Positions 1 through 9,206 of a stretch of DNA of 64,000 bases are shown here, piece after piece. A program made the translations under genes and the position numbers. The notes beneath the pieces are model-generated. The model had not been told where the DNA came from, searched no databases, and worked only from the letters and a program-made list of their open reading frames with translations. Origin of the DNA: an uncultured Roseicyclus sp. (GTDB taxonomy: Bacteria > Pseudomonadota > Alphaproteobacteria > Rhodobacterales > Rhodobacteraceae); assembly GCA_947494975.1 (NCBI GenBank), contig CANLXA010000003.1, positions 62,001 through 126,000 on the forward strand, given 5' to 3'. The stretch's first letter is position 1. Each line of letters starts with the position of its first letter.

Positions 1-1607
1 ATGGCCGCCGGCAGGGCGAAGCCGATGGAGCCGAGATAGCCCGACATCATCACGTGCTGGCCCTTGGTCTCGAAATACCGCCCGAAGGAATAGGTGTTGT
101 TGCCGACATCCACCGCGATAAGCGCATCGGCGGGGGCCACGCGCGAAAGCGCCTCGAAGATCGCGGCGGAATGCACGCCGTTTGCGGCCTCCTCCGAAAG
201 GCGGGCGGTTTTCTCGGCCCGCCACATCTCCCACCGATCTGCCAGCTCCGCCATCTGGTCCGGCGCGTCCGGATTGCGCGTCAGGTGGCGTTCAATGGCC
301 GAACAGAAGGCCCCGATCTCACCCCAGACCGGCAGGGTGACGGGGTGGAACTTGCCAAGCTGCATCCGCTCGAAATCCACCTGGATCGTGGGTTTGCCGG
401 AATTGATGCCGGTGTGGTTGGAGAACGAGGCGCCAAGCACGATCTGCAGGTCACATTCATTCATGAACCAGCTGGCAATCGGTGTGCCGGAACGGCCCAG
501 AACCCCGCCCGCATTGGGGTGGCTGTCGGCAATCAGGCCCTTGCCCTTGAAGGTCGTCACCACCGGCGCGCCCATGGTTTCGGCCAGCGCGGCGATCTGT
601 TCGCGCGCCTCCCACGCGCCGTGGCCGATAATGATGATCGGGCGCTTGGCGTCATTGATCATGCGGATCGCCTGATCCACGTCGATATCGGCGGGTTTCA
701 CGACCGGGCCGGACATGCGGCCTTCGGGCTTGCCTGCGGGCGCGTCGCTCGGCTGCGTCTGCATGTCGTCGGGGAAGATCAGGTGAGAGACGTCCCGCTC
801 GATCAGCGCGGTCTTACACGCCAGCGAGGCAAGCTCGGTGTGGTTCGACGTCGACAGGACCGGTTGCGAGAACCGGCTCACGGCCTGGAACGCGGAGAGC
901 AGATCGATATCCTGAAACGCGCCGGGGCCCATCACTTGCGTCTGGACCTGCCCGGTCAGCGCCAGAACCGGCGCGCGGTCGACTTTTGCATCCCACATGC
1001 CGGTCAGCAGATTGGTGGCGCCGGGCCCCGCGATGGTCAGGCAAGCGGCCGGTTTGCCGGTCACTTTGCCATAGGCCGATGCGGCGAAGGCGGCGGCACC
1101 CTCGTGGCGGATACCCACATAGCTCATCGCGCCGGTGAGCGTCTGGCGGCGGATCGCGTCGGCGAGGCCCAGATTGGAATGGCCGACCATCCCGAACACC
1201 CGTTTGACGCCCCAGTTCACCAGCGTTTCCGCCATCGCATCGGTGACGGTGCGGGTGTGCTCGGGCTCCGGCTCCAGCCCCACATAAACGCCGCCATCGC
1301 GCACCTCGACCGGGTAGGTTTTCTGCCCGGTATCCTCGTGCCCGCCCGGAGGCGCCCCGGTCAGCGGGTCGAAATCCCAGCCGTGCCAGGGGCAGCGGAT
1401 CCAGCATTTGTCATCGACGCCACGCTCGATCGTGCCTTCACCAAGCGGCCCGCCCTGATGCGGGCAATGGTTGTCCATCGCCGCCCAGTGGCCATCGAAA
1501 TGGGACAGGCAGATGAAGGTCGTGCGCGCGGTGACGGTCTTTACCCGGCCCTCGGGCACTTCGGCCACGTCAGCCACATGGATCCAGTCGAGGGTCTCGT
1601 CAGTCAT
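1..1607 (-). CDS. Rieske-fused TPP-dependent pyruvate-oxidase/acetolactate-synthase-like enzyme (partial)
   Basis: The frame is open to the left edge, so about 535 residues are visible and the C-terminal TPP-binding domain is mostly missing. Residues 1-110 form a Rieske [2Fe-2S] domain with ligands C48/H50 and C72/H75 (CPH and CPWH motifs). From about residue 118 a TPP-enzyme PYR domain begins: the catalytic glutamate is E169 in IRHEGAAAFA, followed by AGPGATN and a DAKVDRAPVLALTGQ stretch that resembles pyruvate oxidase (PoxB/POX) more than biosynthetic acetolactate synthase. A central domain and the start of the C-terminal domain follow. The substrate is unknown; a 2-oxo acid is expected from the family. 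The start ATG at 1607 overlaps the stop of the upstream gene; ATG codons at 1610 and 1613 are in-frame alternatives. It is the last visible gene of the leftward Rieske operon. The fusion is the odd point: the Rieske domain could carry electrons away from a flavin on the TPP enzyme (inference). Confidence 0.85.
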   Translation of the reverse strand, partial: MTDETLDWIHVADVAEVPEGRVKTVTARTTFICLSHFDGHWAAMDNHCPHQGGPLGEGTIERGVDDKCWIRCPWHGWDFDPLTGAPPGGHEDTGQKTYPVEVRDGGVYVGLEPEPEHTRTVTDAMAETLVNWGVKRVFGMVGHSNLGLADAIRRQTLTGAMSYVGIRHEGAAAFAASAYGKVTGKPAACLTIAGPGATNLLTGMWDAKVDRAPVLALTGQVQTQVMGPGAFQDIDLLSAFQAVSRFSQPVLSTSNHTELASLACKTALIERDVSHLIFPDDMQTQPSDAPAGKPEGRMSGPVVKPADIDVDQAIRMINDAKRPIIIIGHGAWEAREQIAALAETMGAPVVTTFKGKGLIADSHPNAGGVLGRSGTPIASWFMNECDLQIVLGASFSNHTGINSGKPTIQVDFERMQLGKFHPVTLPVWGEIGAFCSAIERHLTRNPDAPDQMAELADRWEMWRAEKTARLSEEAANGVHSAAIFEALSRVAPADALIAVDVGNNTYSFGRYFETKGQHVMMSGYLGSIGFALPAA

Positions 1608-1899
1608 CATCATTGTCCTTGCTTGCCGGGTCAGCGGGCGGGGCGGGGGTGAAAAAGTCGAAGAGCTTCTGCAGCCAGGTGAGGATCAGGAAGATCGCGA
1701 CGACCCAGATCAGCAATTCGAAGGGTGCGAAATCGGTGCCGCGCAGCCAGCGGGCCAAAAGCCCGCCCTGGGGCCGCAACTCCATTACGCCGAACAGGCC
1801 GTCGCGGCCCCACAGGCGGAAATCCCAGAAGCGCGACAGATAGTAGAAGACCGCCGTGATCAGGGCGACGATGGACAGAAAAACGACGCGGCGGATCAT
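1600..1899 (-). CDS. small two-helix membrane protein, unknown
   Basis: A 99-residue protein with an N-terminal hydrophobic segment (about residues 4-22), a short loop rich in R and G, a second hydrophobic segment (about residues 60-80) and an acidic tail ending KDNDDD. I recognise no family. It overlaps the upstream gene by four bases (ATGA) and its own stop overlaps the start region of the Rieske-TPP gene, so translation is coupled in a leftward operon. Its position between a single-pass secreted-domain protein and the TPP enzyme suggests a membrane-anchoring or assembly role in the same complex, but this is only inference from order. Confidence 0.75.
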   Translation of the reverse strand: MIRRVVFLSIVALITAVFYYLSRFWDFRLWGRDGLFGVMELRPQGGLLARWLRGTDFAPFELLIWVVAIFLILTWLQKLFDFFTPAPPADPASKDNDDD

Positions 1900-2657
1900 C
1901 GGGCGAGCTCCACGGTCTCGGTATCCACGGTCAGCACCAGCATGTCGCCATGGCGCGCGACATCGCCTTCCAGCGTCACATAAAGACCCACGTAATCGAT
2001 GAGGGCCGGGGGCAGCACCTCGTCGCCTTCGCCGGTGATAAGCAGGAACGCCTCGCCCTCAATCGGTTGGGTTGTCACGAAGACCGGGGGGATGCCGCCC
2101 AGAATGCAAAGGTTGGCACAGGCGCGGTGGCCGATGCCGCGCCCGGGGCGCATCGCACCGGCTTCACATTTGCCATCGCAAATCTCGCCGGTGATCTCCC
2201 AACGGCCCAGGGGCTCGGGTTCGGGGATGTCGGGGATCGCGGATTGATCCTCGGCGGCGCGAAACGCGTTGCCGCCGTTGAGCTGCAGCATGCCGAGATC
2301 GCCACGGTCAAACAGCACGCCGGTGGCCTGCACCAGCTGCCCCTCCAGCTCCATGGCGCGTTCTACGGCCCCATTCTTGCCCTGACCGGCCAGCATCAAC
2401 GTCTGGCCCTCCGGGATCGTGTCGTTGCCTTGGGTGACATGCAGGATCGGGCTGGGGGTCAATTCCAGAACGCCCAACACCGTCTGCGGGCCGAAATCGA
2501 AGCGCGGGCGCGACTGGCCGGGATCGTCCTGCGTGAGCGACAGGGCATAGGCGAGGCCCGCGGCCCCCACCAGAAGCAGCAGGCAGGTGGCGGTCAGGAA
2601 CAGGCGCAGGCCCGGCGGGACGCGCAGGTAGCCTACGAAGAACGGATCATCTTTCAT
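1896..2657 (-). CDS. single-pass membrane protein with exported C-terminal domain, unknown
   Basis: The protein has 253 residues. One transmembrane segment lies at about residues 17-40 (LFLTATCLLLLVGAAGLAYAL), and the rest (about 210 residues) is soluble and probably periplasmic. It holds four cysteines in two close pairs (CDGKC and, 20 residues on, CANLC), which could form disulfides or bind metal. No catalytic motif is recognised. It overlaps both neighbours by four bases, placing it firmly within the Rieske operon directly after the ferric-reductase-like Rieske protein. A role as the periplasmic partner of the redox complex is possible but unproven. Confidence 0.8.
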   Translation of the reverse strand: MKDDPFFVGYLRVPPGLRLFLTATCLLLLVGAAGLAYALSLTQDDPGQSRPRFDFGPQTVLGVLELTPSPILHVTQGNDTIPEGQTLMLAGQGKNGAVERAMELEGQLVQATGVLFDRGDLGMLQLNGGNAFRAAEDQSAIPDIPEPEPLGRWEITGEICDGKCEAGAMRPGRGIGHRACANLCILGGIPPVFVTTQPIEGEAFLLITGEGDEVLPPALIDYVGLYVTLEGDVARHGDMLVLTVDTETVELAR

Positions 2658-3718
2658 GCCGGTGCCTCCTGCGCTGGGGTGCCTGCGGGAGCGGGAACGG
2701 GATCGACGGGCGTGCCGGGCGGGTTCGGCTCCGGGTCCACAAACACCGCATCACCTTCCAGCTTCAGGCGATAGGTCGGCACCTTTTCGGTGAACGGAGC
2801 GGGGGATTGGCCGCTGCGCACATCGTATTGGAAGCCGTGCCAGGGGCAGGTGACGAGGCAATCGAGGATGCGCCCCTCACCCAGGGGGCCGTTTTGATGG
2901 GCGCAGGCGTTGGAAATGGCGCTGAACTGGCCTTCATGGCGGAAGACGGCGACGCGGTCGCCGGAGGGCAACAGCGCGATCCTGGCGCGGCCTTCGGGGA
3001 TGTCGCTCGCCGGTCCCACGGGTACCCAATCGGTGGCAGGCGTGGCGCGTGTCCGCTCCCGCAGGGCGGCCCAGATATGCAGGGCCACGACCAGTAGCGC
3101 GCCGACGGTGAAGATCACCGCCAGCGTCTCGTTCCCGCGCGCCTGAAACGCCCCAAGCGCCACGTGGCCCACCAGCGCCGCATAGGCCGGGTAGATCAGG
3201 AAATGCACCGCCTTCCAGACCGGCGGCGTGAGGAATTTGAGCCAGAAATCATGGCTCGTCGCCGCCAGTATCAGCAGGCAGATGAGCGCGAATATTCCAA
3301 GGCTTTCAAAGGGAAAGCCCAGGGGCTGCCCGTAGCTGGTATTGGCGAAGAGGACCGTTTCCCACTGCGTCGCGCCTTGATAGGCCGAGAAATACCAGCC
3401 AAGCACGAAATAGGCATGGCTGAGAGCCACGGCAGCCGTCATCACCCCGAAATGGCGCCGATTGTAGAGCAGCGGCAGGAACCGCCGGTCGAGGCGCGCC
3501 AGCGGGCCGATGCACAGGATGATGGTCAGCATCACAAACGCGCAGGCGCCATAGGCGCGGGCATTGCGGATCGGCGGGTTGATCGGGCGTTCGTGGTTCA
3601 GAAGGCCGGGCGCGATATGGATGAAGATCCACAAGAACAGGCCGACGCCCAGAAGCAGGACGGCATCATAACCCCATTTAGAGCGGTTCCACTGCACCGG
3701 GATATACTTGACGCTCAT
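2654..3718 (-). CDS. ferric-reductase-like transmembrane protein with C-terminal Rieske domain
   Basis: This 354-residue protein has two parts. Residues 15-220 contain about six membrane segments of the ferric-reductase/MsrQ (YedZ) superfamily, with histidines suited to heme b binding (H101 in SHAYF, H156, H172 in VHFLIYP, H185 in GHVALG). Residues 230-320 form a Rieske domain with ligands C272/H274 and C291/H294. The tail is rich in proline and alanine. A heme-bearing membrane core joined to a cytoplasmic 2Fe-2S domain suggests electron exchange between the quinone pool or periplasm and cytoplasmic partners. It is coupled by four-base overlaps to the genes on both sides. Calling it a ferric reductase would go beyond the evidence, since there is no flavin or NAD domain. 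Confidence 0.85.
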   Translation of the reverse strand: MSVKYIPVQWNRSKWGYDAVLLLGVGLFLWIFIHIAPGLLNHERPINPPIRNARAYGACAFVMLTIILCIGPLARLDRRFLPLLYNRRHFGVMTAAVALSHAYFVLGWYFSAYQGATQWETVLFANTSYGQPLGFPFESLGIFALICLLILAATSHDFWLKFLTPPVWKAVHFLIYPAYAALVGHVALGAFQARGNETLAVIFTVGALLVVALHIWAALRERTRATPATDWVPVGPASDIPEGRARIALLPSGDRVAVFRHEGQFSAISNACAHQNGPLGEGRILDCLVTCPWHGFQYDVRSGQSPAPFTEKVPTYRLKLEGDAVFVDPEPNPPGTPVDPVPAPAGTPAQEAPA

Positions 3719-4098
3719 TGCGACGCCTCCGATCCGCCATCGGGTGCAACAAGGAGATGAGGCGCGCGGTCAGCTGGCCATGTCTGGCGAATGGTGAAGC
3801 CGGTGGCGAGCGTGATCACCACGATCACCCCCATCAGGGCCGCGGCCACGCCATGGGCGGCACGCGGCGGGCTGTGGCGGCCCTGCCAGCTTGCGGCGCC
3901 GGTTTCCTCGCGCAGCCAACGCCACAGGACGAGCGGCCAGATCAGCAGGATCGCGGGGATCAGGAGCGGGCGGAACGCATAGGCCCCGCGCGCATCCTCA
4001 TCGATCCGATCCATCCCGACGGTCAGGAAGATCAGGGCCACGACCGCGCCGATCACGCAATAGCCCTGCGCCAGCGCGATGATCGCCGTCGCCGTCAT
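3715..4098 (-). CDS. small multi-pass membrane protein, unknown
   Basis: A 127-residue protein with three hydrophobic stretches (about residues 5-26, 40-60 and 82-102). The conserved-looking stretch GMDRIDEDARGAYAFRPLL followed by WPLVLWRW separates the first and second helices. The start is chosen at 4098 because this ATG overlaps the stop of the upstream glutamate-synthase-like gene as ATGA; a longer frame begins at 4152 inside that gene and is unlikely. It sits between two Rieske-domain proteins in the same coupled operon and may be a membrane subunit of the redox complex (inference). Confidence 0.8.
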   Translation of the reverse strand: MTATAIIALAQGYCVIGAVVALIFLTVGMDRIDEDARGAYAFRPLLIPAILLIWPLVLWRWLREETGAASWQGRHSPPRAAHGVAAALMGVIVVITLATGFTIRQTWPADRAPHLLVAPDGGSEASQ

Positions 4099-5708
4099 CC
4101 CGCAACGCCCCCATAGGCCACACCTGACAGATCCGCCATGTCGCGTTTCCACGTGGTCAGGTCACTCTGGTTGAAGCCCGACAGGTGCGAATGCCCGCAG
4201 GCGCGTGCCATCACCTGCATCAGCTCCACGCTGGCATCGAAGAAGTTCGCCAGCCTGCGGGCCGATTTCTCAATGACAAGACGGCTGACAAGCTCGGGCT
4301 TCTGGGTGGCAATGCCGACGGGACAATTGTTCGTATGGCAGGCCCGCATCGCGATGCAGCCGATGGCCTGCATGGCCGAGTTGGAGACCGCGATCGCATC
4401 GGCTCCCATCGCCATCGCCTTGATGAAATCGGCCGGTTTGCGCAGGCCGCCGGTGATCACCAGCGACACGTCCTTGCGCCCCAGCACATCAAGATGCCGC
4501 CGGGCGCGGGCCAGGGCCGGGATCGTGGGGACCGAGATGTTATCCCGGAAGATGATCGGGGCCGCACCGGTGCCGCCGCCGCGCCCGTCGAGGATGATGT
4601 AGTCCACACCTACCTCAAGGGCGGCATCGATATCCTTCTCCACATGCTGCGCACTGAGCTTGTAGCCGATGGGAATGCCGCCCGTGCGGTCGCGCACCTC
4701 GTCGGCGAATTCCCTGATCTGCGACGGCTCCGTCCAATCGGGGAAGCGCGGGGGTGAGATCGCGTCGGTACCCTCTTCGATCCCGCGCACTTCGGCGATC
4801 TTTCCCTTGTTCTTGGCTCCGGGGAGGTGGCCGCCGGTGCCGGTCTTGGCCCCTTGGCCACCCTTGAAGTGAAACGCCTGAACCTTGGAGAGCTTCTCCC
4901 AGTCGAACCCGAACCGGGCCGAGGCAAGCTCATAGAAGTACCGACTGTTGGCTTCCTGCTCCTCCGGCAACATGCCACCTTCGCCGGAACAGATGCCGGT
5001 GCCGGACAGCTCGGCGCCGCGCGCCAGCGCGATCTTGGCGGGTTCGGACAAGGCACCGAACGACATGTCGGAAACGAAGAGCGGGATTTTCAGGCGTAGC
5101 GGCTTCTGCGCATTGGGCCCGATCACCACATCGGTGCCGACAGGATCGTCATCCAGAAGCGGCGGCGTCTGCAACTGCGCGGTGAGGATCTGGATATCGT
5201 CCCACGATGGCAGCTCATCGCGTGGGACGCCCATGGAATCCACCACACCGTGATGGCCGGTCTTGGAGAGGCCGTCGCGGGCATATTGCTGGATCAGGCC
5301 ATTATGGGGCTCTTCCGCCGTGCCGTGGGAGGTGTCGGCATAAAGCCCCAGATAGGCGTCGCGGTTGAAGGGCTGGGGATTGTCCTCGGCCCAGGCGGCG
5401 ATTTCATCGGCATCCACGAGGATGTCGTCACCCTCCACCCACGCCTTGAATTTTGGCAGCTTTTCCTCGTTGGCATAGGCCGACACGCCGGTATCCAGGC
5501 GATAATCCCAATTGTGCAACCCGCAAATCAGGTCCTTGCCGCGCACGTAACCATCCGACATCAGAGCACCGCGATGCAGGCAGCGCCCGTAGAACACCGA
5601 CACCTCGTCATCGAAGCGCACAACGACAAGATCGACGTCCGCCACCAGGGCGTATTCCGGCGTTCGGTCTGGAAGTTCGCTGACGCGTGCAACGGATGTT
5701 TTGTTCAT
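4095..5708 (-). CDS. Rieske-fused FMN-binding glutamate-synthase-like protein
   Basis: This 537-residue protein begins with a Rieske domain (residues 1-105; ligands C43/H45 and C62/H65). The rest is the FMN-binding central barrel of glutamate synthase (GltB). The barrel's iron-sulfur cysteines are intact: C451, C457 and C462 in the C-x5-C-x4-C pattern around CHTNNCPVG, expected to hold a [3Fe-4S] cluster. The glutaminase domain and the NADPH-binding small subunit are absent. It could therefore be an FMN oxidoreductase wired through two cluster types, with the Rieske domain replacing the usual electron donor. The true substrate is unknown and glutamate synthesis should not be assumed. The gene starts three bases after the antiporter stop and overlaps the next gene by four bases. 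Confidence 0.9.
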   Translation of the reverse strand: MNKTSVARVSELPDRTPEYALVADVDLVVVRFDDEVSVFYGRCLHRGALMSDGYVRGKDLICGLHNWDYRLDTGVSAYANEEKLPKFKAWVEGDDILVDADEIAAWAEDNPQPFNRDAYLGLYADTSHGTAEEPHNGLIQQYARDGLSKTGHHGVVDSMGVPRDELPSWDDIQILTAQLQTPPLLDDDPVGTDVVIGPNAQKPLRLKIPLFVSDMSFGALSEPAKIALARGAELSGTGICSGEGGMLPEEQEANSRYFYELASARFGFDWEKLSKVQAFHFKGGQGAKTGTGGHLPGAKNKGKIAEVRGIEEGTDAISPPRFPDWTEPSQIREFADEVRDRTGGIPIGYKLSAQHVEKDIDAALEVGVDYIILDGRGGGTGAAPIIFRDNISVPTIPALARARRHLDVLGRKDVSLVITGGLRKPADFIKAMAMGADAIAVSNSAMQAIGCIAMRACHTNNCPVGIATQKPELVSRLVIEKSARRLANFFDASVELMQVMARACGHSHLSGFNQSDLTTWKRDMADLSGVAYGGVAG

Positions 5709-5711
5709 GTC

Positions 5712-6980
5712 TCAAGTCCCTGTCGGTTCAGTCTGTTTTGTTTTCAAGGCGGTGGTGGAGGGCTCTTCTGGCCGCATCTCACCATCAATCTCGCTCATCT
5801 GCGCAAGCCGACGCGCGTAAAGAGTGGCACCCGGTGCGGCGCTGATCCCGTGCAGGACGGCGCTGATCCAGACGGCGTTTACTGCAAGGTATATCACGTC
5901 TTCGGCCACCCCGTGGTCAAGCTGTTCGGCCACCAACAGGGCAAAGAGCGCGGTCGCGAGGCCGCGTGGACCGAACCAACCGAAAAAGATCCGCGAGGTG
6001 GGGGAGGCGTCGGTGCCCAGAAGCGAGAGCCAGATTGCCAGCGGGCGGACGACGACGAGACTCCCGAGGATCAGGAGGAAGGTATTGAGCGTCAGGTGGG
6101 CCACGGCCTGCGGCACGAGGACCGCGCCCAGAAGGAAGAAGGCGGCCCAGGACAGCAACTGCCCTTCGCTTTCGGTGAATTCATAGACAAAGGCGCATTG
6201 GCCGCGCACGACGGCGCCAAAGCCGAGACCGGCGGCGAAGGCCGCGATGAAGCCGTTGCCACCAATTTGGGTAGCGGCGAGGTAGCTCATGCCCGCCAGC
6301 GCCAGCGCGCCGATCCCCTCGTAGACATCCGAGGTGGAATGCGTGCGTTTGGCCCAAAGCAGGACATAGCCCGCAACAAGCCCGAGACCGATACCCACCA
6401 GCGGGCCAAGCACCACCTGCTTTAGCGTGAACAGAAGCCAGCCGCCATCGGGGGCCATCGCCTCAGGCGCGGCAAGGGCCGCCATCATCAGGACAAGCGG
6501 CAGGGCGAGCCCGTCATTGAGGCCGCTCTCGACGGTAAGGGCCCGACGGGGGCGTTCGGGGATATCCGTGTTTGTCACAACGGCCTGCCCAAGGGCGGCA
6601 TCGGTGGGCACCAGAATAGCCGCGATCAGGGCCACCACCGCGAACGGCCAGCCGGGCAGCAGGACCCACCCGAGTGCCACACCGAACAGAAACCCCAGGG
6701 GCAAGCCGATGGCGAGCATCCGAAACGGCCAGACCCGGCGACGCAGAAGCGCGCGTTGATCGATCTGGGCGGCATCCAGAAACAGCAGCACGATCAGCGC
6801 GACCTCCGCCACCACGTGCAAAGCGGCCTCGGAGCTTTGTTCAGGCACCATGCCGAACTGGGCCAGCAATGCCCCGAAGCCCAGGAAGACCATCGGAGCA
6901 GTCAAGATGGTGCCGGACAGGCGGTTCGCGACCATGCAGAACGCGGACAGGAACATGGCAATGGTCAGATAGCCCATCAT
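5712..6980 (-). CDS. CPA1-type Na+/H+ (cation/proton) antiporter
   Basis: A hydrophobic protein of 422 residues with about 12 membrane segments, of the NhaP/CPA1 monovalent cation:proton antiporter family. Family features include VPTDAALG in the middle helix (position of the transport aspartate), VESGLNDGLALPLV a little further on, and FFGWFGPRGLATALFALL near the C-terminus. The start is taken at ATG 6980 (a second ATG follows at once at 6977); a GTG at 7010 is possible but lacks a ribosome-binding site. It is the first gene of the tight leftward operon leading into the Rieske proteins, with only three bases before the next start. That placement suggests ion or pH balance linked to the redox system (inference). 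Confidence 0.88.
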   Translation of the reverse strand: MMGYLTIAMFLSAFCMVANRLSGTILTAPMVFLGFGALLAQFGMVPEQSSEAALHVVAEVALIVLLFLDAAQIDQRALLRRRVWPFRMLAIGLPLGFLFGVALGWVLLPGWPFAVVALIAAILVPTDAALGQAVVTNTDIPERPRRALTVESGLNDGLALPLVLMMAALAAPEAMAPDGGWLLFTLKQVVLGPLVGIGLGLVAGYVLLWAKRTHSTSDVYEGIGALALAGMSYLAATQIGGNGFIAAFAAGLGFGAVVRGQCAFVYEFTESEGQLLSWAAFFLLGAVLVPQAVAHLTLNTFLLILGSLVVVRPLAIWLSLLGTDASPTSRIFFGWFGPRGLATALFALLVAEQLDHGVAEDVIYLAVNAVWISAVLHGISAAPGATLYARRLAQMSEIDGEMRPEEPSTTALKTKQTEPTGT

Positions 6981-7129
6981 GCCTGCTGTCGCCCCTTCGT
7001 CCGTTCGCACGTCTCGCCGGGATGTTAGGGCGTATGAGGATGAAATAGCTATAGAATTGGTGATGTCGGGCGATCACGTTTTTCCTCGGCGGCGTGAACG
7101 CGTGGCCCCGGATCGCTGCGGCGACCGGC

Positions 7130-8638
7130 TCAAACCCCGCCGTCACGCTTGCGCGTCCAGCGGTGCAGCCAGACCGGGCTGAGAGGCGCGCCCGCCTCAT
7201 CGCGCAGGATCAGGCGCAGCTCCAGCGCGTCGGCCGCTTCCGGGGTCAGAAGGAAGGTCACGCGCGTGCCGCGCCCCTCGGGCAGGGCAAAGAGGCTAAG
7301 GCCGGTCAACAGGTCCTGCGATGGGCCGGACACCGACAGATCGGGCACGCGCCCGTCAGCCGGGCCCTCGAAATCCACCACGAACCGGCGGGTGGCTGGG
7401 AATTCATGCTCCCGCCCGCTGCGCGATTGCACGATGGCGGCGGGATGGGCCTGATCCGGGGGCGACTTGGTCCAGACGAGCTGATAATCGAAGCGATGTT
7501 CTGAGCCCGCCTCTAACGGCGCGGCGGGGCGCCAGAAGGCCACGATATTGTCGAGGAACTCGGTGCCCGTCGGGATTTCCACCAGCATCACCGCGCCGTC
7601 ACCCCAATCCCCCACGGGCCGCACAGAGGCCGAGGGGCGGTTCTGATACTGCGCCTCGGTATCCTCAAAATCCTCGTAATCCCGCGCGGTCTGGTAGAGG
7701 CCAAAGGCGGCGGGTGCGGTATCGGCGAAGGCAGAGGTCTCGATCCGCGTCGGGTTCGCGATGGGCCGCCAGAGCCGCTCCCCCGCGCCGTTTTCGATGA
7801 AGAGCACGTCACTGTCATGGACGCGCGGCCGGAAGTCATCGGATGCCGCGCCATGCATCGGCCCCTTGAGATACATCGAGGTGAGTGGTGCGATCCCGAT
7901 GGTCGTCAGCTCCGTGCGGGGCAGGAGGGTGACGGAGATCTCCATCACCGTATCCGCGCCGGGGATCAGCGTAAGGTCGACATATCCGGCAAGCGACGGG
8001 CTGTCGATCAGGCCCTCGATCCGGATGCGGCCATTCACGCCGTCATGGAGGCGCAGATGGGTGAAGCGCGGGAATTCCTCGGGCTCCGCGCCGCCCGTGC
8101 CAAGCGCGACCGTGCGCGCCGACAGCCCGTACACCATCGCCTGCCCGATGGCGCGGAAGTAGCTGGCGCCCTGAAAGACCGCGACCTCGTCCATCACTTT
8201 CGAATTGTTGAGAGGATGGCGTAGGCGCAGGCCGGAAAATCCAGCTCCCGGAGCAGTTTGCGGGATGTCGTTAAAGTAGCGTGGTTCGAAATCGAAGAGA
8301 TCCGGGGTCAGCGGCAGATCGCGCCATTCGCCGTCAACAAGGCGGTCGACCTGAACCGGATCGGGGAAGTAAAGGCCCGGCGGCAGGAGGTCGACCGCGA
8401 AGCCTTCCCCCTGGGGCAACATCGCGGCCCGTCCGGCAATCGGTCGGATGCCCCGATAGGCGTTGTAGTCCAGATCGGCAAAGGGCGCGGGCAGGGTGCC
8501 AGACGGTGGCACATATGGCACGCCCGCGAGGCGACGCGCGTCGTCAAGCAAAGAGCGGCCCTGCTGCGCCCAAACGCCGATAGGCGAGGTGGACAGGCCA
8601 CCGGCCATCAGGGCCAAAAGGGTACGGCGGTCAATCAT
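7130..8638 (-). CDS. opgG: periplasmic glucan biosynthesis protein OpgG/MdoG
   Basis: This 502-residue protein belongs to the MdoG/OpgG family, which acts in the periplasm in making or shaping osmoregulated periplasmic glucans. The N-terminus DRRTLLALMAGG with a following AQ cleavage site is a twin-arginine (Tat) type signal. Family segments are clear: the N-terminal Y.P......L.YD.YRGIR-like stretch, ISVTLLPRTEL, MYLKGPMH, HDSDVLFI, and EFLDNIVAFWRP. Start ATG 8638 is chosen because it places the signal at the N-terminus and follows the cytochrome b561 stop by 13 bases. The glucosyltransferase opgH, which usually adjoins opgG, is not in the window. Confidence 0.93.
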   Translation of the reverse strand: MIDRRTLLALMAGGLSTSPIGVWAQQGRSLLDDARRLAGVPYVPPSGTLPAPFADLDYNAYRGIRPIAGRAAMLPQGEGFAVDLLPPGLYFPDPVQVDRLVDGEWRDLPLTPDLFDFEPRYFNDIPQTAPGAGFSGLRLRHPLNNSKVMDEVAVFQGASYFRAIGQAMVYGLSARTVALGTGGAEPEEFPRFTHLRLHDGVNGRIRIEGLIDSPSLAGYVDLTLIPGADTVMEISVTLLPRTELTTIGIAPLTSMYLKGPMHGAASDDFRPRVHDSDVLFIENGAGERLWRPIANPTRIETSAFADTAPAAFGLYQTARDYEDFEDTEAQYQNRPSASVRPVGDWGDGAVMLVEIPTGTEFLDNIVAFWRPAAPLEAGSEHRFDYQLVWTKSPPDQAHPAAIVQSRSGREHEFPATRRFVVDFEGPADGRVPDLSVSGPSQDLLTGLSLFALPEGRGTRVTFLLTPEAADALELRLILRDEAGAPLSPVWLHRWTRKRDGGV

Positions 8639-8651
8639 CTGGAGCGGCGGC

Positions 8652-9206
8652 TCAATCCACGCGCCCGGCGCGCGGCCACATCCGGGAAAACACGCCATCA
8701 CGTTTGATCAGCCCATGTTGCAGCGCCGCGCCGATATGCAGAGCGATCAGCGCCACAATCACCCAGGCGCCGTAGAAATGCACCGCCTTGGCAAAATCCG
8801 CCAGGGCGTCGGAGCGGGGAACAAGGGCGGGGACGCCCAACGCATCGAGCGATTCAATCGGAAAGCCCCCGGCGCGGACCCGGACATAACCCGCCACTGG
8901 CATGAGGAAGAGCAGCGCGTAAAGCAGCCCATGGGTCAACCGGGCGATCTTGACCTGCCAGCCGGGCAGATGTGCAGGCTCCGGCGGCGGGGCATTGCGC
9001 CAGCGATAGATGATCCGGATGACGATGAGCAGCATAAGCAAGACGCCCACATTCTTGTGGAAGATAAACAAGGCGTTCTGCAGGGGCCGACCAAGCCCAT
9101 CCTGGATCATGATAAAGCCCACCGGGATCATGGGCAGAACCAGCAATGCCATCAGCCAATGAATCCACCGTGCAGGGGCGCGGTATGTCGGTGCCGGAAT
9201 TGTCAT
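8652..9206 (-). CDS. cytochrome b561 family membrane protein
   Basis: A 184-residue, four-helix protein of the prokaryotic cytochrome b561 family, which carries two b hemes and passes electrons from quinol. Likely heme histidines lie in the first helix (ARWIHWLMAL), second helix (IFHKNVGVLL), third helix (LTHGLLYALLF) and fourth helix (ALHIGAALQHG). Start ATG 9206 fits the family length. It lies just upstream of opgG in the same direction; a functional tie is not obvious, though the pair may share a promoter in the 103-base divergent gap at 9207-9309. Confidence 0.9.
   Translation of the reverse strand: MTIPAPTYRAPARWIHWLMALLVLPMIPVGFIMIQDGLGRPLQNALFIFHKNVGVLLMLLIVIRIIYRWRNAPPPEPAHLPGWQVKIARLTHGLLYALLFLMPVAGYVRVRAGGFPIESLDALGVPALVPRSDALADFAKAVHFYGAWVIVALIALHIGAALQHGLIKRDGVFSRMWPRAGRVD

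What the first reader, a model, noticed from the sequence alone, without database searches (positions are those of the whole stretch)
1..6980. Seven-gene coupled operon containing three different Rieske-domain fusion proteins
Seen: seven leftward genes with gaps of at most three bases or four-base overlaps, from a CPA1 antiporter to a TPP enzyme cut by the window edge. Three of the encoded proteins (ferric-reductase-like membrane protein, glutamate-synthase-like FMN protein, pyruvate-oxidase-like TPP enzyme) each carry an intact Rieske domain with both ligand pairs; three small membrane or exported proteins of unknown family lie between them. Known: Rieske domains of this soluble type serve as electron carriers. 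Inference: the operon encodes a membrane-linked redox complex in which two cytoplasmic oxidoreductases feed or draw electrons through the heme membrane protein, with ion balance from the antiporter. I know of no described pathway with this set.
Basis: partly seen in the sequence, partly recalled or inferred. Interest (0 to 1): 0.8.

Follow-up and report, generated by a model that had tools for sequence, protein, structure and literature searches.

The report
Rieske-wired membrane redox operon
A seven-gene bacterial operon joins three enzymes that each carry the same kind of iron-sulfur plug, one of them a heme protein in the membrane, and because these genes turn up together in many genomes, sometimes even when scattered, they probably form one undescribed electron-transfer system.

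Summary
Seven leftward genes are tightly coupled; the last ends 0.37 kb left of the window, before a mobile element, so the operon is complete. All three Rieske domains keep their ligands.

In 149 genomes of the family, RieGOGAT occurs in 15, the membrane Rieske protein (FRRie) in 15, RieTPP in 9. All 9 RieTPP genomes carry RieGOGAT; 8 carry all three. In 385 genomes of the class, 7 carry all three, four of them (two genera) at separate places. Three haloarchaeal plasmids carry RieTPP plus RieGOGAT, one with an antiporter between them.

The system is modular: (a) a four-gene membrane block, often alone, with an unclassified, probably periplasmic Cys4/His protein; (b) antiporter plus RieGOGAT; (c) RieTPP.

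Best model: cytosolic Rieske-fused oxidoreductases exchange electrons with the cytosolic Rieske of a predicted diheme membrane conduit serving the periplasmic partner. Path, direction and substrates are inferred. FRD-Rieske and CDGSH-GOGAT architectures were known. I found no description of this set, or of Rieske-GOGAT or Rieske-TPP, in nine full-text searches of an open-access library.

The parts
5712..7010 (-). CPA-type Na_H_Exchanger antiporter (422-432 aa), first gene of the operon
   Evidence: Pfam PF00999 119 bits; best NCBIfam models are K+/H+ antiporter PRK05326 (103 bits, below the cut-off 355). Upstream of RieGOGAT on the same strand in 15 of 80 named loci, all 15 with RieGOGAT, and next to RieGOGAT in G157, G271 and G567 of other families
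4095..5708 (-). RieGOGAT: N-terminal Rieske + glutamate-synthase-type FMN/Fe-S domain, no glutaminase domain (537 aa)
   Evidence: Pfam Rieske 47 bits, Glu_synthase 303 bits; Rieske ligands and C451/C457/C462 in 14 of 14
3715..4098 (-). S127 (called S130 in scripts): small membrane protein, no known family
   Evidence: no Pfam/NCBIfam match; three hydrophobic segments; recognised beside FRRie in 15 of 15 family genomes, in some as a shorter ORF
2654..3718 (-). FRRie: ferric-reductase-type membrane domain with four invariant heme-type His + C-terminal Rieske (354 aa)
   Evidence: Pfam Ferric_reduct 41 bits, Rieske 58 bits; H89/H101 and H172/H185 in 68 of 68; AF2 model pLDDT 88.5 with six long helices, then the Rieske part, which matches dioxygenase ferredoxins
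1896..2657 (-). P253: membrane-anchored, probably periplasmic protein, two OB-like domains, CxxxC...HxxCxxxC motif, no known family (253 aa)
   Evidence: no Pfam/NCBIfam match; in 72 relatives no NCBIfam match to 0.01 and no Pfam match better than 0.011; C164, H177, C180, C184 in 72 of 72, C160 in 65 of 72; AF2 pLDDT 93.3; no PDB fold match at E <= 0.001
1600..1899 (-). S99: small membrane protein, no known family
   Evidence: no family match; two hydrophobic segments; recognised in 12 of 15 family loci, another small ORF in its place in 3
1..1613 (-). RieTPP: N-terminal Rieske + pyruvate-oxidase-like TPP enzyme; full length 660 aa, ends about 370 bases left of the window
   Evidence: Rieske ligands and E171 in 9 of 9; closest solved relatives PoxB 3eya/3ey9

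Best explanation
A modular Rieske-wired electron-transfer system. FRRie is a transmembrane conduit of the ferric-reductase/MsrQ/NOX kind: four invariant histidines in or at helices 3 and 5 should hold two b hemes, and its soluble-type Rieske domain should lie in the cytosol. Through Rieske-to-Rieske contact it exchanges electrons with cytosolic oxidoreductases that carry their own Rieske domain: RieTPP (a PoxB-like 2-oxo-acid oxidase, most likely for pyruvate, lacking PoxB's C-terminal membrane tail) and RieGOGAT (an FMN/3Fe-4S-type protein). As in characterised ferric-reductase-domain proteins, electrons most likely run from cytosol to periplasm, to the Cys4/His site of P253, with S127 and S99 as accessory membrane subunits. 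The antiporter goes with RieGOGAT and would balance protons and cations. Shown: gene set, domains, ligands, co-occurrence, module structure. Inferred: cofactors bound, topology, partner contacts, direction, substrates, physiological role (neighbours of relatives point to oxidant or electrophile stress rather than a catabolic pathway).
For: Four-gene membrane block complete in 78 of 80 named loci, the other two cut by contig ends. RieTPP beside this block in 38 of 80, 11 of them without RieGOGAT nearby, with varying place: downstream 33, upstream 3, opposite strand 2; its Rieske is present in 38 of 38 and that of RieGOGAT in 37 of 37. Family sample of 149: RieGOGAT-FRRie 10 shared (1.5 expected), RieGOGAT-RieTPP 9 (0.9), FRRie-RieTPP 8 (0.9); class sample of 385: 8 (0.4), 7 (0.35), 7 (0.7). 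Four of the 7 class genomes with all three hold them apart: G157 and G291 (one genus) tens of kb apart on one contig, G271 and G374 (one genus) on three contigs each. All seven genes in the same order in another family, G567. RieTPP + antiporter + RieGOGAT on a haloarchaeal plasmid. A further Rieske fusion (Rieske-FMN_red) follows FRRie in L247. The FRRie Rieske resembles soluble dioxygenase ferredoxins. Distance matrices of RieTPP and RieGOGAT correlate, r 0.90 over 18 genomes, 0 of 2000 permutations.
Against: Modules also live apart: the membrane block without RieGOGAT or RieTPP in the fetched flanks in 32 of 80 loci, RieGOGAT alone at 4 of 14 complete loci, RieTPP without FRRie or full RieGOGAT in 8 of 15 class genomes. 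Away from the family the block frays: of 12 FR loci, S127 is recognised in 8 and S99 in 1 (other small ORFs stand in some), and in L247 P253 is missing. Haloarchaeal and mycobacterial plasmid records with RieTPP hold no FR domain (the rest of those genomes was not searched), so RieTPP and RieGOGAT may work without the conduit. Co-occurrence is not corrected for phylogeny; one per genus outside the own family the overlaps shrink to 4, 3 and 3. The tree correlation partly reflects shared ancestry. The genome searches scored only a few candidates per genome (3 to 13), so misses are possible. No contact, cofactor or direction was measured. RieTPP scores well below the curated cut-offs of the pyruvate oxidase models it matches, so its substrate is open.
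Confidence: 0.45

Rival explanations
1. A stress or redox gene island: the modules answer the same condition (oxidants, electrophiles, pH or salt) and travel together, but each Rieske enzyme is fed or drained by general cytosolic reductases and there is no shared electron path through FRRie.
For: Modules separate freely; RieTPP and RieGOGAT occur on plasmid records without an FR domain. Neighbours of relatives look stress-like: CDGSH-GOGAT paralogue with pirin, GST and hemerythrin, haloarchaeal islands with pirin, peroxiredoxin, MerA-like, DsrE, FMN_red and antiporter near RieTPP.
Against: Why three unrelated enzyme scaffolds of one operon should each carry a Rieske domain is left unexplained. 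FRRie is followed by yet another Rieske fusion in L247. RieTPP sits with the membrane block even without RieGOGAT nearby in 11 of 80 loci.
Confidence: 0.3
2. A soluble couple: RieTPP oxidises pyruvate and passes electrons Rieske-to-Rieske to RieGOGAT, which reductively aminates 2-oxoglutarate or a similar acid; the membrane block is an overflow or a separate system.
For: In the family sample every RieTPP genome has RieGOGAT (9 of 9); three of four haloarchaeal plasmid records with RieTPP hold the pair, without an FR domain.
Against: RieTPP sits beside the membrane block without RieGOGAT nearby in 11 of 80 loci and occurs without a full-length RieGOGAT in 8 of 15 class genomes. RieGOGAT shows no glutaminase domain and the genome has a GltB-type gene, so glutamate synthesis is not shown.
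Confidence: 0.12
3. Reverse flow: electrons from the periplasm or quinol enter through FRRie and drive RieGOGAT reduction, the antiporter paying with ion gradients.
For: The antiporter travels with RieGOGAT (all 15 same-strand antiporter loci among the 80); electron transfer through heme proteins is in principle reversible (general knowledge).
Against: Characterised FRD proteins move electrons outward (MsrQ to periplasmic MsrP, NOX to oxygen: passages of PMC5676040); RieTPP would then have no role as donor.
Confidence: 0.06

Closest known systems
MsrPQ / YedYZ (periplasmic methionine sulfoxide reductase system)
   Same: Membrane FRD heme protein passing electrons to a periplasmic partner; weak NCBIfam match of FRRie to MsrQ (24.6 bits)
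   Different: FRRie carries its own Rieske; the neighbour is P253 (OB-like, Cys4/His), not the molybdoenzyme MsrP; two further small membrane proteins
FRD-Rieske architecture (model M4 of PMC3591440)
   Same: Ferric reductase domain combined with a Rieske domain, already listed in a figure legend
   Different: The legend lists an FMN part for M4 too; no operon, partners or function in what I read (passages and one section)
Type 5 CDGSH proteins (PMC3174974)
   Same: 2Fe-2S domain fused to the N-terminus of a glutamate-synthase FMN domain; the window's RieGOGAT is 70% identical to such a protein over 407 residues
   Different: Rieske instead of two CDGSH motifs; the 25 RieGOGATs of the tree, haloarchaea included, lie apart from four CDGSH forms (midpoint root)
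PoxB / pyruvate oxidases
   Same: TPP-enzyme scaffold, closest solved relatives PoxB 3eya/3ey9
   Different: N-terminal Rieske, no counterpart of PoxB's C-terminal end (alignment stops at PoxB residue 528), below curated cut-offs

Membership tests
MsrPQ | FRD-type membrane heme subunit with conserved His in TM3 and TM5 | tested here: met
   Pfam Ferric_reduct 41.4 bits over cut-off 28; H89, H101, H172, H185 in 68 of 68; H89 and H101 in model helix 87-112, H185 in 175-192, H172 ending the short helix before. Heme itself not testable
MsrPQ | molybdopterin methionine sulfoxide reductase partner MsrP | tested here: not met
   No such domain in the seven proteins; the gene after FRRie is P253 in 15 of 15 family loci; in L247 it is a Rieske-FMN_red fusion
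MsrPQ | above NCBIfam MsrQ cut-off | tested here: not met
   24.6 bits against 130
Pyruvate oxidase / PoxB | TPP-enzyme N, M and C domains with catalytic Glu | tested here: met
   E171 in 9 of 9; that this is the catalytic Glu is recalled
Pyruvate oxidase / PoxB | curated equivalog score | tested here: not met
   375 bits against 742 for PRK08611 and 297 against 792 for PRK09124
Pyruvate oxidase / PoxB | FAD bound, pyruvate as substrate | not testable with these tools
   needs protein
Pyruvate oxidase / PoxB | C-terminal lipid-binding segment of PoxB (recalled) | tested here: not met
   profile alignment ends at PoxB 528 of 549-572, near the end of RieTPP
Glutamate synthase (GltB) | FMN-binding synthase domain and 3Fe-4S cysteines | tested here: met
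   Glu_synthase 303 bits; C451/C457/C462 in 14 of 14, same motif in the own GltB-type gene; cluster type recalled
Glutamate synthase (GltB) | glutaminase domain | tested here: not met
   no such match in 537 aa; 126.5 bits against cut-off 1047 of the large subunit model
Type 5 CDGSH protein | tandem CDGSH motifs | tested here: not met
   Rieske in their place in the window's protein; CxH...CxxH found in 25 of 25 RieGOGATs and in 0 of 4 CDGSH forms
CPA-type antiporter | Na_H_Exchanger domain | tested here: met
   119 bits over 26.2; transported ion not testable; TIGR00831 (a_cpa1) cut-off not reached, 49 against 280
Soluble Rieske ferredoxin (dioxygenase type) | CxH...CxxH ligands and fold | tested here: met
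   FRRie model matches carbazole dioxygenase ferredoxin, TM-score 0.86 by target length

The most novel reading that the evidence does not exclude
A plug-and-socket electron bus: one transmembrane diheme protein with a cytosolic Rieske socket serves several unrelated cytosolic oxidoreductases (2-oxo-acid oxidase, GOGAT-like FMN protein, FMN reductase), each fitted with a Rieske plug, and delivers their electrons to a new periplasmic Cys4/His protein. It would be a respiration-like outlet for pyruvate and FMN enzymes that bypasses NADH and quinones.
Probability: 0.33. Interest if true: 0.85.

Novelty: new variant of a known kind. Interest (0 to 1): 0.62.

Why it matters
If right, bacteria use interchangeable Rieske domains to plug several cytosolic enzymes into one membrane heme conduit, an organisation I found no description of. 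It would give a function to proteins now annotated as thiamine pyrophosphate-binding, glutamate synthase-related, Rieske domain-containing and hypothetical, and it brings out an unclassified protein family (P253) with an invariant metal- or thiol-type site. The set occurs in named marine Rhodobacteraceae strains, so it can be tested directly.

Tried and rejected
TRAP transporter next to the operon as a substrate clue: a DctM-type match in 16 of 135 loci against 2 of 15 control loci, and of different types; no enrichment.

MdoG and cytochrome b561 upstream as further members: among the loci searched, found near the operon only in L110, the sister species, plus a 39% MdoG-like hit in L237.

Other conserved neighbours: clustering of 1911 called genes from 108 loci gave, beside the seven, one broad cluster in 38 loci that looks like ABC ATPases, and sets shared mainly within groups of near relatives (17-18 loci with a Cys/Met PLP enzyme and a 332-aa protein; 10-12 Roseobacter loci). 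These were not followed further.

A stress-sigma promoter pattern of my own making upstream of the operons: 12 of 94 loci against 14 of 470 random pieces, with duplicate genomes and a poor control (mostly coding DNA); not used.

RNA element upstream: none at gathering threshold in 6900-7300.

Family identification of P253, S127 and S99: no Pfam match up to E = 1 for the window's proteins. Among 72 P253 relatives no NCBIfam match up to 0.01; Pfam gave DUF5818 in 7 members at best 0.011, but none of ten distant members matched it up to E = 1, so it stays a weak lead. No PDB fold match at E <= 0.001 among 389 up to E = 10: the top three are single-stranded-DNA-binding proteins (0.008-0.042), then other OB-fold proteins and superantigens from 0.05, too weak to mean relationship.

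Literature: nine full-text searches listed no paper on this set. I read passages of PMC3591440 and its section 10, and passages of PMC3174974, PMC5676040 and PMC8097209; the rest only as search listings.
Full report
1. What is there. Seven leftward genes run from an antiporter (start 6980 or 7010) to a TPP enzyme cut by the window edge. Names used here: antiporter, RieGOGAT, S127 (S130 in the scripts), FRRie, P253, S99, RieTPP. Pfam finds Rieske domains in RieGOGAT (47 bits), FRRie (58) and RieTPP (58), beside Glu_synthase, Ferric_reduct and TPP-enzyme domains. S127, P253 and S99 match no family. Reading left of the window shows that RieTPP is 660 aa and complete; the next gene is an integrase, so the operon ends there.

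2. Ligands and topology. All four Rieske ligands are invariant in each fusion: 14 of 14 RieGOGAT, 68 of 68 FRRie, 9 of 9 RieTPP. RieGOGAT keeps three cysteines (C451, C457, C462, 14 of 14) that align with the same motif in the genome's GltB-type gene. FRRie keeps H89, H101, H172 and H185 (68 of 68). In its model (pLDDT 88.5) H89 and H101 lie in the third long helix (87-112), H185 in the fifth (175-192), and H172 ends the short helix before it. PMC3591440 gives four conserved heme histidines in TM3 and TM5 for this superfamily (passage), so two b hemes are likely. My hydropathy scan found only five of the model's six long helices; with six helices and a basic N-terminus (3 K/R, no acid) the C-terminal Rieske should be cytosolic. 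P253 has one N-terminal membrane helix; its charges do not settle the side, and 'periplasmic' is my reading. P253 keeps C164, H177, C180, C184 and M169 in 72 of 72 and C160 in 65 of 72.

3. Distribution in the family (149 genomes, one per genus). RieGOGAT matches reach into the Rieske part in 15 (one, G098, cut by a contig end); other GOGAT-type matches do not. FRRie is in 15, P253 in 15 with strong E-values and a sixteenth genome with a weak one, RieTPP in 9. Shared: RieGOGAT-FRRie 10, RieGOGAT-RieTPP 9, FRRie-RieTPP 8, all three 8. Linkage is not needed: in G029 RieTPP lies on another contig, in G001 and G017 the membrane block does, and in G125 it lies over 1 Mb away.

4. Modules. In 15 of 15 FRRie genomes the order S127-FRRie-P253-small ORF holds; S99 is recognised in 12 and another small ORF stands in its place in 3. 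Seven of the 15 lie behind RieGOGAT, eight do not. Of 14 complete RieGOGAT loci, RieTPP is beside it in 8, the membrane block in 7, the antiporter in 5, and 4 have none of these adjacent; in one of the four, L047, a gene clustering with the antiporters lies 3.6 kb away on the other strand.

5. Named genomes. A scan with FRRie gave 409 relatives, of which the best 80 were kept. These are biased to near relatives, several are cut by contig ends, and some are the same genomes as in the family sample (for example L123, L130, L131, L145, L166). The four-gene block is complete in 78; the other two are cut. RieGOGAT is in 37, RieTPP in 38, both in 27, RieTPP without RieGOGAT in 11, neither in 32. The antiporter is on the same strand upstream of RieGOGAT in 15 (a further hit, L134, is on the other strand at 40%). 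All seven in one locus: 10. RieTPP lies downstream of the block in 33, upstream in 3 and on the opposite strand in 2, which speaks against mere inherited order.

6. Class sample (385 genomes). RieTPP 15, FRRie 18, full RieGOGAT 9; five further GOGAT matches start at 92-130 of the query, one of them (G492) cut by a contig end. All three in 7: G000, G399, G157, G291, G244, G271, G374. In G157 and G291 (one genus) they are on one contig but apart, in G271 and G374 (one genus) on three contigs each. Fisher tests give 3.5e-11, 9.5e-10 and 7.1e-7; outside the own family and one per genus the overlaps are 4, 3 and 3 (p 7e-6, 5e-4, 7e-3). The reduced denominators there (380 and 275) were my approximations, and phylogeny is not modelled. 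These searches scored only 3 to 5 candidates per genome, so misses are possible. Away from the family the block frays: of 12 FR loci, P253 is found in 11, S127 recognised in 8 and S99 in 1. In another family, G567, all seven stand in the same order. In the phylum sample RieTPP occurs in 4 of 200, all in the window's class.

7. Beyond the class. Five plasmid records of 72,556 hold RieTPP at E <= 1e-100: four haloarchaea and one Mycobacteroides abscessus. Of seven records with a RieGOGAT match at E <= 1e-120, three include the Rieske part, all haloarchaeal and all among those four. In Halorarius the order is RieTPP, Na_H_Exchanger, potassium channel, two small genes, RieGOGAT; its exchanger is only 28% identical to the window's antiporter. 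In Salinirubellus the pair is 1.4 kb apart without an annotated antiporter between, in Halorubrum about 17 kb apart. No match to the FR part is on the five records; the rest of these genomes was not searched. An antiporter and an FMN_red protein lie near RieTPP also in the Mycobacteroides plasmid and in alphaproteobacterium G331.

8. Swappable iron-sulfur domains. A non-Rieske relative of RieGOGAT (70% over 407 residues) has two CDGSH motifs, the type 5 CISD of PMC3174974 (passages). Some RieTPPs are longer, CDGSH-Fer4_19-CDGSH-Rieske-TPP (L214). In L247 FRRie is followed by a Rieske-FMN_red fusion where P253 usually lies. On a midpoint-rooted tree 25 RieGOGATs, haloarchaeal ones included, lie apart from four CDGSH forms; RieTPP and RieGOGAT distances correlate (r 0.90, 18 genomes, 0 of 2000 permutations), though common descent contributes.

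9. P253. The model (pLDDT 93.3) has one membrane helix and two beta domains; the motif sits at the end of one strand and on two helices in the second domain. No PDB match at E <= 0.001; the top three are single-stranded-DNA-binding proteins at 0.008-0.042. OB-like is therefore a reading, not a proof.

10. Mechanism. The simplest reading of one domain type on three scaffolds that travel together, one of them a heme membrane protein, is Rieske-to-Rieske exchange with FRRie as conduit to P253. Outward flow is chosen because known FRD proteins work so (passages of PMC5676040). RieTPP is PoxB-like but below curated cut-offs, so pyruvate is a guess. RieGOGAT shows no glutaminase domain and the genome has a GltB-type gene with a 1639-aa frame, so glutamate synthesis is not implied. 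Neighbours of relatives (pirin, GST, hemerythrin, peroxiredoxin, DsrE, MerA-like) suggest oxidant or electrophile stress; this was not tested statistically, and other relatives have ordinary neighbours, for example housekeeping genes beside the membrane block in L102 and L103.

11. Verdict. Observation confirmed; linkage of the three fusions strongly supported; the fixed single complex not supported; electron path open. FRD-Rieske and 2Fe-2S-GOGAT architectures were known. The set, Rieske-GOGAT and Rieske-TPP gave no hit of substance in my nine searches of open-access text, which miss most subscription journals; P253 is in none of the family libraries I searched. The nearest named relative is an uncultured Roseicyclus (L110; 91% DNA identity over 9.1 kb).

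Noticed in passing
left of the window, L009:3705-9265 (C3:55705-61265): Mobile element (tyrosine integrase, DUF5906 primase-like protein, resolvase-like ORF by eye) inserted behind the operon; the sister locus L110 has an intact tRNA-Thr (TGT) where similarity ends.
   Followed up: partly
window 7130-9206: MdoG (periplasmic glucan) and a cytochrome b561 gene overlap by 50 bases just upstream of the operon; among the loci searched both are found again only in the sister species L110.
   Followed up: partly
L105, L236, L245, L249, L257: OpgC-like genes lie near membrane blocks in five loci; with MdoG beside the window's operon this may hint at osmoregulated glucans, or be chance.
   Followed up: no
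L214:7488-10148: Five-part protein CDGSH-Fer4_19-CDGSH-Rieske-TPP enzyme (886 aa); L215, L216 and L217 have RieTPP frames of similar length.
   Followed up: partly
L247:6257-7384: Rieske-FMN_red fusion (375 aa) directly behind FRRie, in the place where P253 usually lies.
   Followed up: partly
G123:C1:3287847-3289172 and G032:C24:1444-2775: GOGAT-like frames of about 730 aa with one internal TAA in two genomes.
   Followed up: no
L058 and related loci: CDGSH-GOGAT paralogue in a partly conserved neighbourhood with pirin, glutathione transferase-like, hemerythrin and a LysR regulator.
   Followed up: partly
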